Below, piece after piece: positions 29,226 to 33,050 of a stretch of DNA of 37,137 nucleotides (position 1 is its first letter; each line of letters opens with the position of its first letter). A model generated the notes under the pieces. The model had not been told where the DNA came from and did no database searches. It was given only the letters and a program-made list of their open reading frames with translations. The stretch covers positions 1 through 37,137 of the forward strand of contig JADGPK010000022.1 in the NCBI GenBank assembly GCA_017882445.1, read 5' to 3'. Both the position numbers and the translations under genes were made by a program. The DNA is from Solirubrobacteraceae bacterium (GTDB lineage Bacteria > Actinomycetota > Thermoleophilia > Solirubrobacterales > Solirubrobacteraceae).

Positions 29226-30437
29226 ACGTCCCCTCCCACACAGGCGCTGCGCCCCACCGGCCACCTCGAGGAGCGCTTCTGGCCGCTCGACGAGAGCGTA
29301 CCGTCGTGGGGTCGGCAAGGCGGCGCCTATCGCGTCTTCCTGCCCGATCGGATCGCGGAGCGCGAGTTTCCCCTCGAAGGCGCTGCCGTCGCCTCGGTGA
29401 CGGATGCGACGAAGGCACTTAGTCACCTCAACAGCACGCAACCCGCGCTCTCCACGCTGGGGGCGCTGGCGCGCAACCTCCTGCGCTCAGAGAGTGCGGC
29501 GTCATCGCGCATCGAGGGGGTCAAGATCTCCCACCGGCGCCTGGCCCGTGCCTCCTACGCCCGCGCCGGCGGACGGCGCGGCGACAACCGCGCCGCCGAA
29601 GTGCTCGGCAATGTGGAAGCGATGGAACGTGCGATCGAAATCGGAGGACGAGCTGACCCGTTCACGGTCGCCGACATCGTCGACATCCACCGCACGCTGC
29701 TTCGCTTCACCGACGACCGCGAAATCGCCGGCGTCATCCGCACCAAGCAGAACTGGATCGGCGGCAACGACCATCACCCGATCGGCGCTACGTACGTCCC
29801 GCCGCCCCCCGAGCTGGTCCCGGCTCTGCTCGAAGATCTAGCCCAGTTCATCGGCCGAACCAACATCGCCGCCGTCGCGCAGGCCGCGATCGTCCATGCT
29901 CAGTTCGAGAACATCCATCCGTTCGCCGACGGCAACGGCCGCACCGGACGCGCATTGATCTACACAGTCCTGCGTCGCCGCCAGGAGATCACCGAGTACA
30001 TACCCCCCATCAGCCTCGTGCTCGCCAGTCAGCCGAAGAGCTACGTCGCCGGGCTGGGCGCCTACAGCTCGGGCGACGTCAGCCGCTGGTGCGAGATGTT
30101 CGCCCAAGCCACGTCTCGCGCGACATACGAGGCCGAGCGCTTGGCCGAGGCGATCGAAGCCCTACAGGCGGACTGGATCGGGCGACTCGGGCGACCCCGA
30201 AAGGATTCCGCTGCCCGCGAACTCATCAGCGCGCTTCCGGCCCAGCCGGTGATCGACGTCCCCGCAGCTCAGCAGCTGACGGGGAAGTCCCATGTAGCAA
30301 TCGGGAATGCAATCCACCAGCTTCAAGCAGCGGGCATCCTCAAGAGCCTCAACGAGCGAAAATGGGGGCAGGTCTGGGAATGCCACGAGCTGCTCTCCCT
30401 CGTCGACCGCTTCGAGAAGAACGTCTCCACGCCCTAG
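29226..30437 (+). CDS. Fic-family protein (AMP-transferase fold) with N-terminal inhibitory motif and C-terminal winged helix
   Basis: In frame from 29226 the product is about 403 aa. The Fic core has HPFADGNGRTGR (catalytic His231). An inhibitory motif SSRIEG (Ser93, Glu97) lies N-terminal to it, which marks a class II, self-inhibited Fic. The C-terminus (PVIDVPAAQQLTGKSHVAIGNAI and following) looks like a winged-helix DNA-binding part. Such proteins AMPylate target proteins. The start is odd: clearly coding Fic-type sequence (HLEERFWPLDESVPSWG, YRVFLPDRIAE) lies upstream of the first canonical in-frame start, GTG 29397, and no ATG, GTG or TTG exists in frame back to the stop at 29121. GAAAGGA at 29214-29220 points to ACG 29226. 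Confidence 0.82.
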   Translation, partial: TSPPTQALRPTGHLEERFWPLDESVPSWGRQGGAYRVFLPDRIAEREFPLEGAAVASVTDATKALSHLNSTQPALSTLGALARNLLRSESAASSRIEGVKISHRRLARASYARAGGRRGDNRAAEVLGNVEAMERAIEIGGRADPFTVADIVDIHRTLLRFTDDREIAGVIRTKQNWIGGNDHHPIGATYVPPPPELVPALLEDLAQFIGRTNIAAVAQAAIVHAQFENIHPFADGNGRTGRALIYTVLRRRQEITEYIPPISLVLASQPKSYVAGLGAYSSGDVSRWCEMFAQATSRATYEAERLAEAIEALQADWIGRLGRPRKDSAARELISALPAQPVIDVPAAQQLTGKSHVAIGNAIHQLQAAGILKSLNERKWGQVWECHELLSLVDRFEKNVSTP

Positions 30438-30463
30438 CAACCGCGCCAATGTGCTGACGCTGG

Positions 30464-30562
30464 GCCGGTGGGCGCATGCGCCCACCGGCGGGGCAGCACA
30501 TGTGCTGCCCCGAGGAGCGCCGCATGCGGCGCTCCACAGGCCGGATCACACGTGACCCGGCC
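30464..30562. repeat. Array of four abutting palindromes between Fic gene and clpS
   Basis: Palindrome 1 is perfect over 26 bp (30464-30489; left half GCCGGTGGGCGCA). Palindrome 2 is perfect over 24 bp (30489-30512; left half CGGGGCAGCACA) and shares one base with the first. Palindrome 3 is perfect over 22 bp (30514-30535; left half GGAGCGCCGCA). Palindrome 4 covers 24 bp (30539-30562), pairing GGCCGG and TCAC with GTGA and CCGGCC, with one mismatched pair and an unpaired centre. The first three share only the central CATG. Their sequences differ, so symmetry itself seems selected. The role is unknown. Confidence 0.85.
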
Positions 30563-30563
30563 C

Positions 30564-30667
30564 TGAGACGGTCGTGGACCAAGCAGGGCTAGGACGCAGT
30601 GAGCGAAGTGTGCTTCGCACATGAGCGATCGAGGACGACGCCCTGCGCCGCGTCCACGGCCGTCTCA
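30564..30667. repeat. Nested long inverted repeat (about 104 nt) ending in the clpS stop codon
   Basis: A 16-base arm TGAGACGGTCGTGGAC (30564-30579) pairs with 30652-30667 (15 of 16). Inside it GCAGGGC (30583-30589) pairs with GCCCTGC (30640-30646). Inside that GCGAAG (30603-30608) pairs with CTTCGC (30613-30618) around TGTG. TGAGCGA occurs twice (30600-30606, 30622-30628). It could be a structured RNA, a shared terminator, or a mobile palindromic element. The right arm includes the clpS stop codon. Confidence 0.7.
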
Positions 30668-30952
30668 GCCCCGCTCGAGGGGAGCCATCGTCAGCCCCGC
30701 GCCCTTCAGCTGCTCCCAGTAGTGCTCGGCTGCCTCCTGGTGGCCGGTGTAGACGACCGCCTTGCCCGAGCTGTGGATCACGTTGGCGATCTCCATGCCG
30801 CGCGTGAGCGTGATGCCGGGGATGTAGCGCGCGAGCGTTCGGGCGACGTGATCGAAGGTGTTGTGGTCGTCGTTGCAGACGATCACACGCCAGGCCCCTC
30901 CCAGCCCGCTTCCGGGCGGGCCCGTGCGGGGAACCTCGATCGCTTGATCCAT
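30665..30952 (-). CDS. clpS: ATP-dependent Clp protease adaptor ClpS
   Basis: The 95-aa product has the ClpS core WRVIVCNDDHNTFDHVARTL, whose Asn-Asp-Asp-His region forms the N-end residue pocket, then ANVIHSSGKAVVYTGHQEAAEHY, including the usual helix and GxA-V segment. It delivers substrates with destabilising N-terminal residues to ClpAP/ClpCP. ATG 30952 is chosen: TATCCT (minus strand, 30964-30959) lies six bases upstream and no ribosome-binding site is seen. An ATG at 30997 would overlap the start of the divergent mutase gene. Its stop lies inside a large inverted repeat. Confidence 0.93.
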   Translation of the reverse strand: MDQAIEVPRTGPPGSGLGGAWRVIVCNDDHNTFDHVARTLARYIPGITLTRGMEIANVIHSSGKAVVYTGHQEAAEHYWEQLKGAGLTMAPLERG

Positions 30953-30958
30953 CGCATC

Positions 30959-30988
30959 AGGATAAAGCTCGCGGCCCGACCGTACAAT
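30959..30988. promoter_or_regulatory. Divergent -10 elements for clpS (minus) and the mutase gene (plus)
   Basis: TATCCT on the minus strand (30964-30959) is six bases from the clpS ATG, and TACAAT on the plus strand (30983-30988) is seven bases from the mutase ATG at 30996. The gap between the two starts is only 43 bases, so both messages would be leaderless. Confidence 0.55.
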
Positions 30989-30995
30989 GACGAGC

Positions 30996-33050
30996 ATGAG
31001 CGGCGATCACTCTGCGCGGCTGCCCGAGCGAGACCGGCCCTGGATGATGCGCACCTACGCCGGGCACTCCACGGCCAAGGCATCCAACGAGCTCTACAGG
31101 CGCAACCTGCAGAAGGGTCAGACGGGCCTGTCGGTCGCCTTCGACCTGCCCACCCAGACCGGCTATGACCCCGACGACGAGCTGGCCAGGGGCGAGGTCG
31201 GCAAGGTCGGAGTGCCGATCTCCCACCGGGGTGACATGGCTGCGCTGATGGACGGCATCCCGCTGGGCGAGATGAACACCTCGATGACCATCAACGCCAC
31301 CGCGGCCTGGCTGCTGGCGCTCTACATCGTGGCGGCCGAGGAGCAGGGCGTGAGCCAGGAGCAGCTCCAGGGCACCACCCAGAACGACATCATCAAGGAG
31401 TTCCTCGCGCGTGGAACCTACGCGTTCCCGCCCGCCCCCTCGATGCGACTGATCGCGGACATGATCGCCTACACGGTCGAGCACGTCCCCAAGTGGAACC
31501 CGATCAACATCTGCTCCTACCACCTGCAGGAGGCCGGCGCGACCCCCGTTCAGGAGATCGCCTACGCGATGAGCAACGCGATCGCCGTCCTCGACGCCGC
31601 CCGTGAGCGCATCGGCGGCGGACACGGCGAGGCCGGCACGCAGCTCATGGGCGAGGTCTTCGGGCGCATCTCGTTCTTCGTCAACGCGGGCGTGCGCTTC
31701 ATCGAGGAGCACGCCAAGCTGCGCGCCATGTCGATCCTGTGGGAAGAGCTCGGGCGCGAGCGCTACGGCGTGGAGGACCCCCGCCTCCTGCGCTTCCGCT
31801 ACGGCGTGCAGGTCAACTCGCTGGGGCTGACCGAGGCGCAGCCCGAGAACAACGTCCAGCGCATCGTGATCGAGGCGCTCGCCGTCACGCTGGGGCGCGA
31901 CGCGCGCGCACGGGCGGTCCAGCTGCCTGCGTGGAACGAGGCGCTCGGACTGCCGCGGCCATGGGATCAACAGTGGTCGCTGCGAATCCAGCAGATCCTC
32001 GCCTACGAGACCGACCTCCTGGAGTACCCGGACATCTTCGAGGGCTCCAGGGTGATGGAGGCGCTCGTGGAGGAGCTGCTCGGCGGAGCCCGCGCCGAGA
32101 TGGCCGTCGTCGCCGAGCACGGCGGCGCGGTGCAGGCCGTCCCCTACATGAAGGCTGCGCTGGTCGACTCGCACCGCGAGCGCATCCGCCGCATCGAGAC
32201 GGGCGAGCAGGTGGTGGTGGGACAGAACCGCTTCACCGAGTCCGAGGACTCGCCGCTGACCGCCGACGCGGAGGGCGGAATCCTGGTGGTCGACCCGGCG
32301 CTCGAAGCCGAGCAGATCGCGGAGGTGCGCCGCTGGCGCTCCGAGCGAGACCAGGCTGCGGTGAAGGACGCGCTCGCCGCGCTCGCGGCCGTGGCTTCAG
32401 AGGAGAACGCCTCTGAGAACCTCATGACCGCGACGATCGCCGCCGCGCGCGCGGGCGCCACGACCGGCGAGTGGTCTCGCACCCTGCGCGAGGTGTTCGG
32501 CAGCTACCGCGCACCTACGGGCGTCGGCGAGGCGACCGCGACGGCGCCCGACGAGGAGATGAACGAGTTGCGCGGCGAGGTCTCGCGTCTGCAGGAGAAG
32601 CTCGGCCGCAGGCCCAAGATCCTGGTCGGCAAGCCGGGCCTGGACGGTCACTCCAACGGCGCCGAGCAGATCGCCGTGCGCGCGCGCGACTCGGGCATGG
32701 ACGTGGTGTATGAAGGCATTCGCCTGACGCCCGCCCAGATCGCCGCCTCGGCGCTGCAGGAGGGCGTGCACGTGATCGGGCTGTCGATCCTCTCGGGCTC
32801 CCACCGCGAGCTGATCCCCGCCGTGATGAACGCACTTCACGACGCCGGCGTCTCGGCTCCGGTGGTGGTCGGCGGCATCATCCCCGAGCAGGACGTGGCC
32901 ACGCTGGAACAGGCGGGCGTCGCCGCGGTGTACACCCCCAAGGACTTCGACATCACCCGCATCATGCGCGACATCGTGGCCCTGGTGGGAGCCGGCGCCG
33001 ACCGGTCACCGGCCGTCGCGAGCAGCACCTCCGCCAACGGCTCGGCGTGA
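30996..33050 (+). CDS. ecm: B12-dependent acyl-CoA mutase, ethylmalonyl-CoA mutase type
   Basis: The 684-aa product comprises a large substrate barrel and a C-terminal cobalamin domain with DGHSNG (Asp550, His552, Gly555), the DxHxxG base-off B12 motif. Barrel segments MMRTYAGHSTAKASNELYRRN, FDLPTQTGYDPD, NTSMTINATAAW and the tail KPGLDGHSNGAEQIA match, from memory, ethylmalonyl-CoA mutases rather than classical methylmalonyl-CoA mutases (which read YAGFSTAEESN and ATHRGYD). Together with ccr this supports the ethylmalonyl-CoA pathway; methylmalonyl-CoA activity is the alternative. ATG 30996 lies seven bases after TACAAT; an ATG nine bases upstream overlaps that hexamer. meaB is coupled at its stop (GTGA). 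Confidence 0.9.
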   Translation: MSGDHSARLPERDRPWMMRTYAGHSTAKASNELYRRNLQKGQTGLSVAFDLPTQTGYDPDDELARGEVGKVGVPISHRGDMAALMDGIPLGEMNTSMTINATAAWLLALYIVAAEEQGVSQEQLQGTTQNDIIKEFLARGTYAFPPAPSMRLIADMIAYTVEHVPKWNPINICSYHLQEAGATPVQEIAYAMSNAIAVLDAARERIGGGHGEAGTQLMGEVFGRISFFVNAGVRFIEEHAKLRAMSILWEELGRERYGVEDPRLLRFRYGVQVNSLGLTEAQPENNVQRIVIEALAVTLGRDARARAVQLPAWNEALGLPRPWDQQWSLRIQQILAYETDLLEYPDIFEGSRVMEALVEELLGGARAEMAVVAEHGGAVQAVPYMKAALVDSHRERIRRIETGEQVVVGQNRFTESEDSPLTADAEGGILVVDPALEAEQIAEVRRWRSERDQAAVKDALAALAAVASEENASENLMTATIAAARAGATTGEWSRTLREVFGSYRAPTGVGEATATAPDEEMNELRGEVSRLQEKLGRRPKILVGKPGLDGHSNGAEQIAVRARDSGMDVVYEGIRLTPAQIAASALQEGVHVIGLSILSGSHRELIPAVMNALHDAGVSAPVVVGGIIPEQDVATLEQAGVAAVYTPKDFDITRIMRDIVALVGAGADRSPAVASSTSANGSA

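What the first reader, a model, noticed from the sequence alone, without database searches (positions are those of the whole stretch)
30464..30562. Four abutting long palindromes with different sequences but the same architecture
Three perfect palindromes of 26, 24 and 22 bp and one near-perfect of 24 bp lie end to end in 99 bp between the Fic gene and clpS. The first three share only the central CATG, so this is not a duplicated repeat: independent sequences all keep dyad symmetry. Possible roles include a multi-site docking platform for a dimeric protein, a cruciform-forming or replication/segregation element, or a compound transcription barrier. I know of no described element that fits well.
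Basis: seen in the sequence. Interest (0 to 1): 0.8.

Follow-up and report, generated by a model that had tools for sequence, protein, structure and literature searches.

The report
Dispersed palindrome-triplet element of soil bacteria
A group of soil bacteria carries scattered copies of a small DNA element made of three or more abutting 24-letter palindromes whose letters differ freely between copies but almost always change in mirror-matched pairs, even inside essential genes, which points to an unrecognised spreading element whose two halves copy each other.

Summary
The palindromes are real and far beyond chance. They are one copy of a dispersed family of arrays (2-6 units, mostly 3-4) of abutting ~24-bp palindromes with an RCATGY centre, found in 19 of 24 genomes of the window's genus (Solirubrobacterales MAGs) by covariance model and read in two related genera. 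Arms are 97-100% paired out to pair 10 and pairing ends after pair 12. Between species at the same site arms change almost only in matched pairs: 22 double-change cells and no broken or G-U cell of 153 at one intergenic site; 23 double, 4 broken, 0 G-U of 174 inside a gene. Arrays usually lie just 3' of genes, but also sit in frame in variable linkers of an ABC-F ATPase (6 of 17 genomes), leucyl-tRNA synthetase (4 of 20) and LysA (1 of 22). That, with no U-tract and very few G-U pairs, argues against a terminator or RNA-selected hairpin. Best reading: a non-autonomous mobile palindromic element, behaving like Rickettsia palindromic elements, whose symmetry is kept at DNA level by arm-to-arm (hairpin-templated) copying. 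REP membership fails (no GTAG; Y1 transposase in 1 of 24 genomes). Mobiliser and function remain unknown.

The parts
30464..30489 (.). unit 1 (class A, CCGGNNGG arm): perfect 26-bp palindrome, centre GCATGC; 24-bp unit 30465-30488
   Evidence: aligned with other arrays
30489..30512 (.). unit 2 (class B, CGGGNCNG arm): perfect 24-bp palindrome, centre ACATGT
30514..30535 (.). unit 3 (class C): perfect 22-bp palindrome, centre GCATGC; 24-bp unit 30513-30536
30539..30562 (.). decayed fourth unit: 24 bp, two mismatched pairs (both A-C on the + strand), centre CACG instead of CATG
   Evidence: pairs counted by hand from the sequence
30465..30536 (.). three-unit array as found by covariance model R1 (90.7 bits on +, 78.6 bits on -; the window is one of the 15 sequences used to build R1)

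Best explanation
The array is one copy of a short, non-autonomous, dispersed palindromic element: normally three 24-bp palindromes (classes A-B-C, each with an RCATGY centre and 12-bp arms) placed end to end, with a short conserved motif (about GYTGTT) outside the A end. It has spread to 11 places in the window's genome and 20 in a relative (arrays picked up by a three-unit pattern), fewer in others, within a Solirubrobacterales genus, and occurs in related genera. It persists where it does little harm: just behind stop codons, and in frame in loops or linkers of proteins. Its exact symmetry is not a protein-binding sequence and not an RNA hairpin held by base-pair selection. It is kept at DNA level: when one arm mutates, the change is copied into the other arm (or reversed), by strand switching or hairpin-templated repair at replication, or during the element's own copying through a hairpin. 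Shown: family, dispersal, symmetry, paired changes, in-frame sites, scarcity of G-U intermediates. Inferred: mobility (from occupied and empty sites), DNA-level arm-to-arm copying, harmlessness. Unknown: the enzyme that moves it and what reads RCATGY and the 12-bp arm length.
For: Family: three spaced RCATGY motifs give 196 forward hits in 24 genus genomes against 5 for the reversed control (my sums of the table; one array can give several hits); covariance model hits 19 of 24 genomes. Symmetry: 63 arrays, 227 units from 9 genomes; pairs 1-10 are 97-100% paired, pair 11 94%, pair 12 79%, pair 13 7.5%; centre spacing 24 in 105 of 164; 201 of 227 units are perfect over 22 bp. Nine distinct arrays from genera g25 and g10 have the same build. 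Paired change at shared sites: intergenic, 5 species, 153 of 153 cells paired, 14 of 40 pairs changed on both sides; in the ABC-F gene, 6 species, 170 of 174 paired, 17 of 29 pairs changed on both sides, no G-U. Units differing by one symmetric pair of bases: 355 comparisons; by a single base: 11; by two asymmetric bases: 0. Not RNA: 13 of 2188 folded pairs are G-U in arrays against 314 of 2766 in 133 ordinary downstream regions; no G-U excess over A-C on the sense strand (17 against 20); symmetric changes are as often transversions as transitions (184 against 171). In-frame sites. Empty sites: lepA array in 2 of the 21 lepA loci fetched (20 read), leuS in 4 of 20, lysA in 1 of 22, ABC-F in 6 of 17 genomes.
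Against: No transposase or other mobiliser is identified and no clean target-site duplication was seen. Selection on DNA hairpins or cruciforms at every site would give the same paired changes. Arrays persist at the same site in up to five (intergenic) or six (ABC-F) species, which could mean function. Palindrome detection allowed about one mismatch per unit, so decayed units are under-counted; one clearly decayed array (L174, G003) fell out of the counts, and half-broken units exist elsewhere (window unit 4; G008 leuS). The sharp 12-bp arm limit is not explained by ordinary template switching. The unit comparisons overlap and are not independent; 87 comparisons differ by three bases and 18 by four in a non-symmetric way, against 1106 by two symmetric pairs. 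The 133 control regions are not known to be functional hairpins.
Confidence: 0.6

Rival explanations
1. Host-useful transcription-boundary element: tandem hairpins at gene 3' ends that terminate transcription or protect mRNA 3' ends in either direction, kept by selection on RNA structure.
For: Of the 57 intergenic arrays with both neighbours called, 38 are tandem, 13 convergent, 6 divergent; for gaps of >=100 bp in a 417-kb sample of the own genome the figures are 67 tandem, 12 convergent, 37 divergent. In tandem gaps the array is a median 25 bp behind the upstream stop and 71.5 bp before the next start; in the 20 arrays the same tendency holds (tandem 10, convergent 7, divergent 2, inside 1). 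The RNA of 30434-30680, which includes the element after the array, would fold very stably: -154.6 kcal/mol for 247 nt, z -7.2.
Against: Against gaps of every length (263 tandem, 66 convergent, 65 divergent) the excess of convergent over divergent gaps is weaker. Arrays lie in frame inside leuS, lysA and an ABC-F gene. No T-run follows the stem (27 oriented arrays) and no terminator-like site is found in 29900-31400. G-U pairs are nearly absent. One array (L020) follows what looks like an ordinary terminator with a T-run (read by eye).
Confidence: 0.17
2. DNA-level host function: docking or cruciform platform for a dimeric or structure-specific chromosomal protein that recognises RCATGY plus a 24-bp dyad.
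For: Centre CATG is strongly preferred even when any centre is accepted (229 of 284 units, next CACG 4), arm length is fixed at about 12 bp and units are regularly spaced; sites are shared by several species.
Against: Pairs 5-11 take all four pair types, so no arm sequence is read; 24-bp spacing does not put units on one helical face (inference); 5 of 24 genus genomes have no model hit; presence at a given gene differs between species of the genus.
Confidence: 0.15
3. Member of the REP/BIME class moved by a Y1 (TnpA_REP) transposase.
For: Small palindromes in clusters, mostly extragenic; some REPs are perfect palindromes (PMC8266576 passages).
Against: No GTAG before the stem (A-end flank is about GYTGTT, 27 arrays); Y1_Tnp found in only 1 of 24 genus genomes, not in G000, G002 or G005 (drafts of 58-97% completeness).
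Confidence: 0.04
4. Assembly artefact or chance of high G+C sequence.
For: The window's genome and most relatives are drafts in many contigs; G+C of the window is 70%.
Against: Present in separately deposited MAGs and in frame in genes of several species; far above shuffles and the reversed-pattern control.
Confidence: 0.01

Closest known systems
Rickettsia palindromic elements (RPE)
   Same: Small palindromic elements scattered in one bacterial lineage, often in frame inside unrelated metabolic genes (PMC10969869 section 13).
   Different: RPEs are ~150 bp, in ten sequence families, each with an ORF for a conserved peptide (same source). Here: 2-6 abutting near-perfect 24-bp palindromes with freely changing arms, no conserved peptide beyond the His of CAT, another phylum.
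REP / BIME with TnpA_REP
   Same: 20-50-nt palindromes, clustered, mostly extragenic (PMC8266576 passages).
   Different: No GTAG, no Y1 transposase found in 23 of 24 genomes, 24-bp units abut directly, arms not conserved.
Coding palindromes of Nematomorpha mitochondria
   Same: Perfect inverted repeats inside protein genes whose arms evolve in concert, with template switching proposed as one possible mechanism (PMC6649704 abstract and passages).
   Different: There the repeats lie in conserved native coding sequence and vary in length; here they are an added, dispersed, fixed-length element.
Quasipalindrome correction by template switching
   Same: A process that turns imperfect into perfect inverted repeats (papers seen in the listing and one passage).
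   Different: By itself it does not explain dispersal, the CATG centre, the A-B-C order or the 12-bp arm limit (inference).
Bacterial intrinsic terminators
   Same: G+C-rich hairpin behind the stop codon.
   Different: No U-tract, dyad through the loop, in-frame copies inside genes.

Membership tests
REP/BIME (TnpA_REP) | GTAG tetranucleotide 5' of the palindrome | tested here: not met
   27 oriented arrays: consensus before unit A is about GYTGTT
REP/BIME (TnpA_REP) | cognate Y1 transposase in the genome | tested here: not met
   PF01797 in 1 of 24 genus genomes; genomes are drafts
REP/BIME (TnpA_REP) | palindromes of 20-50 nt, mostly extragenic | tested here: met
   ~24-bp units; 57 of 63 arrays between two called genes, 4 inside, 2 at contig edges
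Rickettsia palindromic elements | in-frame insertion in unrelated protein genes | tested here: met
   ABC-F, LysA, LeuRS; CAT is a codon in each
Rickettsia palindromic elements | ~150-bp unit encoding a conserved peptide, in sequence families | tested here: not met
   arrays of roughly 50-145 bp; peptides differ between species except around His-Ala/Val
Rickettsia palindromic elements | found in Rickettsia | tested here: not met
   named matches to one A/B consensus pattern: 9 of 10 Solirubrobacterales or Solirubrobacteraceae, 1 Bifidobacterium which is a lone hairpin
MITE | terminal inverted repeats of a known transposon and target-site duplication | tested here: inconclusive
   conserved end motif seen but no clean duplication at empty sites; no parent transposon sought beyond PF01797
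Intrinsic terminator | U-tract after the stem | tested here: not met
   (0 sites in 29900-31400); base counts after the C end of 27 arrays show no T-run
Intrinsic terminator | stops transcription | not testable with these tools
   arrays in frame inside genes speak against it
Known RNA family (Rfam 15) | gathering-score match | tested here: not met
   only a tRNA in the window; none in L012, L017, L020, L102

The most novel reading that the evidence does not exclude
A new class of mobile DNA whose heritable unit is the hairpin itself: each 24-bp palindrome is rebuilt from one arm through a fold-back intermediate measured by an unknown enzyme that reads RCATGY and 12 bp to each side. Sequence may drift without limit while symmetry is regenerated at every copying or repair event, and the element spreads by the triplet.
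Probability: 0.3. Interest if true: 0.92.

Novelty: new variant of a known kind. Interest (0 to 1): 0.77.

Why it matters
It is a very clean natural case in which the two arms of DNA palindromes change together, with hardly any of the G-U half-steps that RNA stems show, and inside protein genes as well as between them. This makes a long-standing question directly testable: whether short inverted repeats stay perfect by selection or by arm-to-arm copying. It also adds a lineage far from Rickettsia where palindromic elements sit in frame in essential enzymes, and it predicts an unknown enzyme that measures 12-bp arms around RCATGY.

Tried and rejected
Transcription terminator: no U-tract, in-frame copies. 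REP. Chance. Rfam family. Phage or plasmid origin: no match in viral contigs (one consensus pattern), plasmids or phages. The Bifidobacterium match is a single long hairpin, not an array. Solitary palindromes in the genome: in 380 kb of contigs or contig parts without pattern hits (C1, C104, C2, first 40 kb of C133; not a random sample) no intergenic CATG-centred one was listed, and one perfect 24-bp GCATGC-centred one lies in a called gene. Clean empty sites: lepA, ABC-F, LysA and LeuRS gave occupied and empty loci, but the empty ones are too diverged to show a duplication. The mismatch-type test accepted any centre and so includes chance hairpins among its 284 units.

Literature: searches (open-licence PubMed Central only; listings seen) gave no paper that by its title or abstract start describes such arrays; one search looked for a recalled genus name and found nothing. 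Papers: PMC10969869 passages and section 13 whole; PMC6649704 abstract, outline and passages; PMC8266576 passages; PMC13155455 passages; other papers in the listings only.

Full report
Observation. The window holds three perfect palindromes (30464-30489, 30489-30512, 30514-30535) and a decayed fourth (30539-30562) end to end between the converging Fic and clpS genes. The longest other perfect palindrome in the window is 20 bp. In 200 dinucleotide shuffles of the window 19 palindromes of 22 bp or more appeared in all, so one alone would be only mildly unusual but three abutting ones are not chance.

It is a family. A similarity search of the own genome with the 241-bp stretch gave other copies of the array (86% over 65-66 nt at C216 and C133) and, separately, copies of the hairpin stretch that follows it. 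Around these copies there are arrays of three to five abutting palindromes of 20-28 bp, nearly all centred on CATG but with different arms. A pattern of three RCATGY motifs 20-30 bp apart has 196 forward matches in the 24 genomes of the genus, against 5 for the reversed pattern; 21 of 24 genomes have at least one (my sums of the table; a long array gives several matches, and genomes with one or two matches were mostly not read). A covariance model built from 15 three-unit arrays, the window's own among them, finds matches at E <= 0.001 in 19 of 24 genomes, one of them weakly (G033, 4.3e-4); G001, G006, G009, G016 and G018 have none. Matches are counted per strand, so the number of arrays is lower than the number of matches. 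Among 399 genomes of the class, counts outside the genus are mostly like those of the control. Genera g25 (G387 17, G389 18, G232 11) and g10 (G171 6) of the same family stand out, and reading their matches confirms arrays: nine distinct ones in the loci held. G390 (5 hits) and two of three G298 hits are not palindromic arrays by eye. A few other genomes with 4-6 hits (such as G042, G045, G049, G111, G222, G314) were not looked into beyond a capped list, in which the hits shown for G045, G222 and G314 are not arrays by eye. Named relatives are Solirubrobacterales and Solirubrobacteraceae MAGs; contig lengths identify G002 with JADGPL (Chersky.17_7), G007 with PLYX (palsa_744) and G010 with WQXW (Emb289P3bin56).

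Anatomy. In 63 arrays with 227 units from nine genomes, pairs 1 to 10 from the centre are 97-100% Watson-Crick, pair 11 is 94%, pair 12 79%, and pair 13 only 7.5%. The centre-to-centre spacing is 24 bp in 105 of 164 cases. Over 22 bp, 201 of 227 units are perfect. The CATG centre is partly a result of how I searched; a scan that accepted any centre around the same arrays still found 229 CATG of 284, with CACG (4) as the next commonest. Arrays have 2 to 6 units, mostly 3 (30) or 4 (21). The usual order, judged by eye, is A (CCGGNNGG arm), B (CGGGNCCG arm), C, with reversed, longer and double-ended versions. A motif of about GYTGTT lies just outside A (27 oriented arrays of 63). Similar flanks are seen by eye in g25.

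Paired change. At one intergenic site shared by five species (acyl-CoA dehydrogenase / PIN gene) 153 of 153 cells pair, 14 of 40 pairs are changed on both sides in some species, 22 cells carry a double change, and none is G-U or broken (no shuffle of 500 reaches the covariation score). Ten of those 40 pairs have letters in only one species and say nothing. Across 15 arrays 446 of 449 cells pair, 108 are double changes, 3 are broken and none is G-U. Within an ABC-F gene of six species 170 of 174 pair, 23 are double changes, 4 are broken and none is G-U. Among distinct units, 355 comparisons differ by one symmetric pair of bases, 11 by a single base and none by two asymmetric bases; 87 differ by three bases, 1106 by two symmetric pairs and 18 by four bases otherwise. 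Symmetric single-pair changes are transversions as often as transitions, 184 to 171 (the comparisons overlap and are not independent, and the threshold for calling a unit disfavours units with two mismatches). Folded as RNA, arrays have 13 G-U of 2188 pairs, while 133 ordinary downstream regions have 314 of 2766 (those regions are not known to be functional hairpins). On the sense strand G-U type mismatches (17) do not exceed A-C type (20). RNA-level selection normally passes through G-U (general knowledge); this pattern does not show it.

Place. In one search the arrays lie in 38 tandem, 13 convergent and 6 divergent gaps, 4 inside genes and 2 at contig edges; 20 further arrays give 10, 7, 2 and 1 inside. 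For gaps of at least 100 bp in a 417-kb sample of the own genome the figures are 67, 12 and 37; for gaps of any length 263, 66 and 65. In tandem gaps the median distance is 25 bp from the upstream stop and 71.5 bp from the downstream start. Genes were called with a script of my own, so single cases may be wrong. Some divergent cases involve small or doubtful genes.

Inside genes. The array is in frame, in a length-variable linker, in an ABC-F ATPase of 6 of 17 genomes, in leucyl-tRNA synthetase between catalytic and anticodon-binding domains in 4 of 20 loci (in G008 the third unit is decayed), and in a variable loop of diaminopimelate decarboxylase in 1 of 22. In each the CAT is a codon (His, followed by Ala or Val). 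Flanking protein sequence continues normally on both sides, so transcription and translation presumably pass through (inference). Between species the encoded peptides differ while DNA symmetry is kept, so the protein is not what keeps the palindrome.

Gain and loss. The clpS array is present only in the window's species among the 28 clpS loci examined; the lepA array in G000 and G002 of the 21 lepA loci fetched, 20 of them read. Twelve groups of arrays share neighbours between species, often with different numbers of units. G003 carries a partly decayed array.

Mechanism. Sequence-specific binding cannot keep variable arms symmetric. RNA selection is disfavoured by the scarcity of G-U and by in-frame copies. 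Two possibilities remain: selection for DNA hairpins or cruciforms at every site, or a copying process that transfers a change from one arm to the other. I prefer the second because symmetry is kept in very different contexts, because single-sided states are rarely caught, and because concerted change of arms, with template switching as one possible mechanism, is reported for mitochondrial coding palindromes (PMC6649704 abstract and passages). The sharp 12-bp limit and RCATGY centre suggest an enzyme with a fixed measure, which would also be the natural candidate for the mobiliser (inference). A Y1 transposase is unlikely (PF01797 in 1 of 24 genomes).

Known or new. The nearest relatives in behaviour are Rickettsia palindromic elements (PMC10969869, section 13 read whole), which also sit in frame in metabolic genes, and REPs (PMC8266576 passages). 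Defining features of both were tested and some not met (see the membership table). Searches of an open-licence library listed no paper on such arrays; that is not proof that none exists.

Noticed in passing
window 30558-30673: A second dispersed element directly follows the array: an imperfect long hairpin with a conserved ~50-nt core (GGACGCAG..GAGCG..GTGC...GCAC.CGAGCG..CGAGGAC), with copies on C2, C218, C1, C216 and C17 and a weak match on C212 of the own genome.
   Followed up: partly
L181-L200, roughly 50-300 nt upstream of lepA: A conserved stretch of about 200 nt with self-complementary blocks lies upstream of lepA in many genus members; no Rfam match in L012 or L102 at gathering score. 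Possibly an undescribed small RNA.
   Followed up: no
L019:3951-3976: A perfect 26-bp palindrome of a different kind (CGCTGTATCACCATGGTGATACAGCG) about 55 bp from an array near ftsZ, perhaps a regulator operator (guess).
   Followed up: no
L123:13079-13102: A solitary perfect 24-bp palindrome with a GCATGC centre inside a called gene of the own genome; it may be a lone unit or chance.
   Followed up: no
G234 (genus g20), whole genome: The reversed control pattern has 19 forward matches in this one genome, so it may hold some other repeat with that spacing.
   Followed up: no
L116:2943-3097 (G002): An irregular array in which GCTGTT-like motifs recur before successive hairpins, hinting that the motif belongs to the single unit as well as to the array end.
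   Followed up: no
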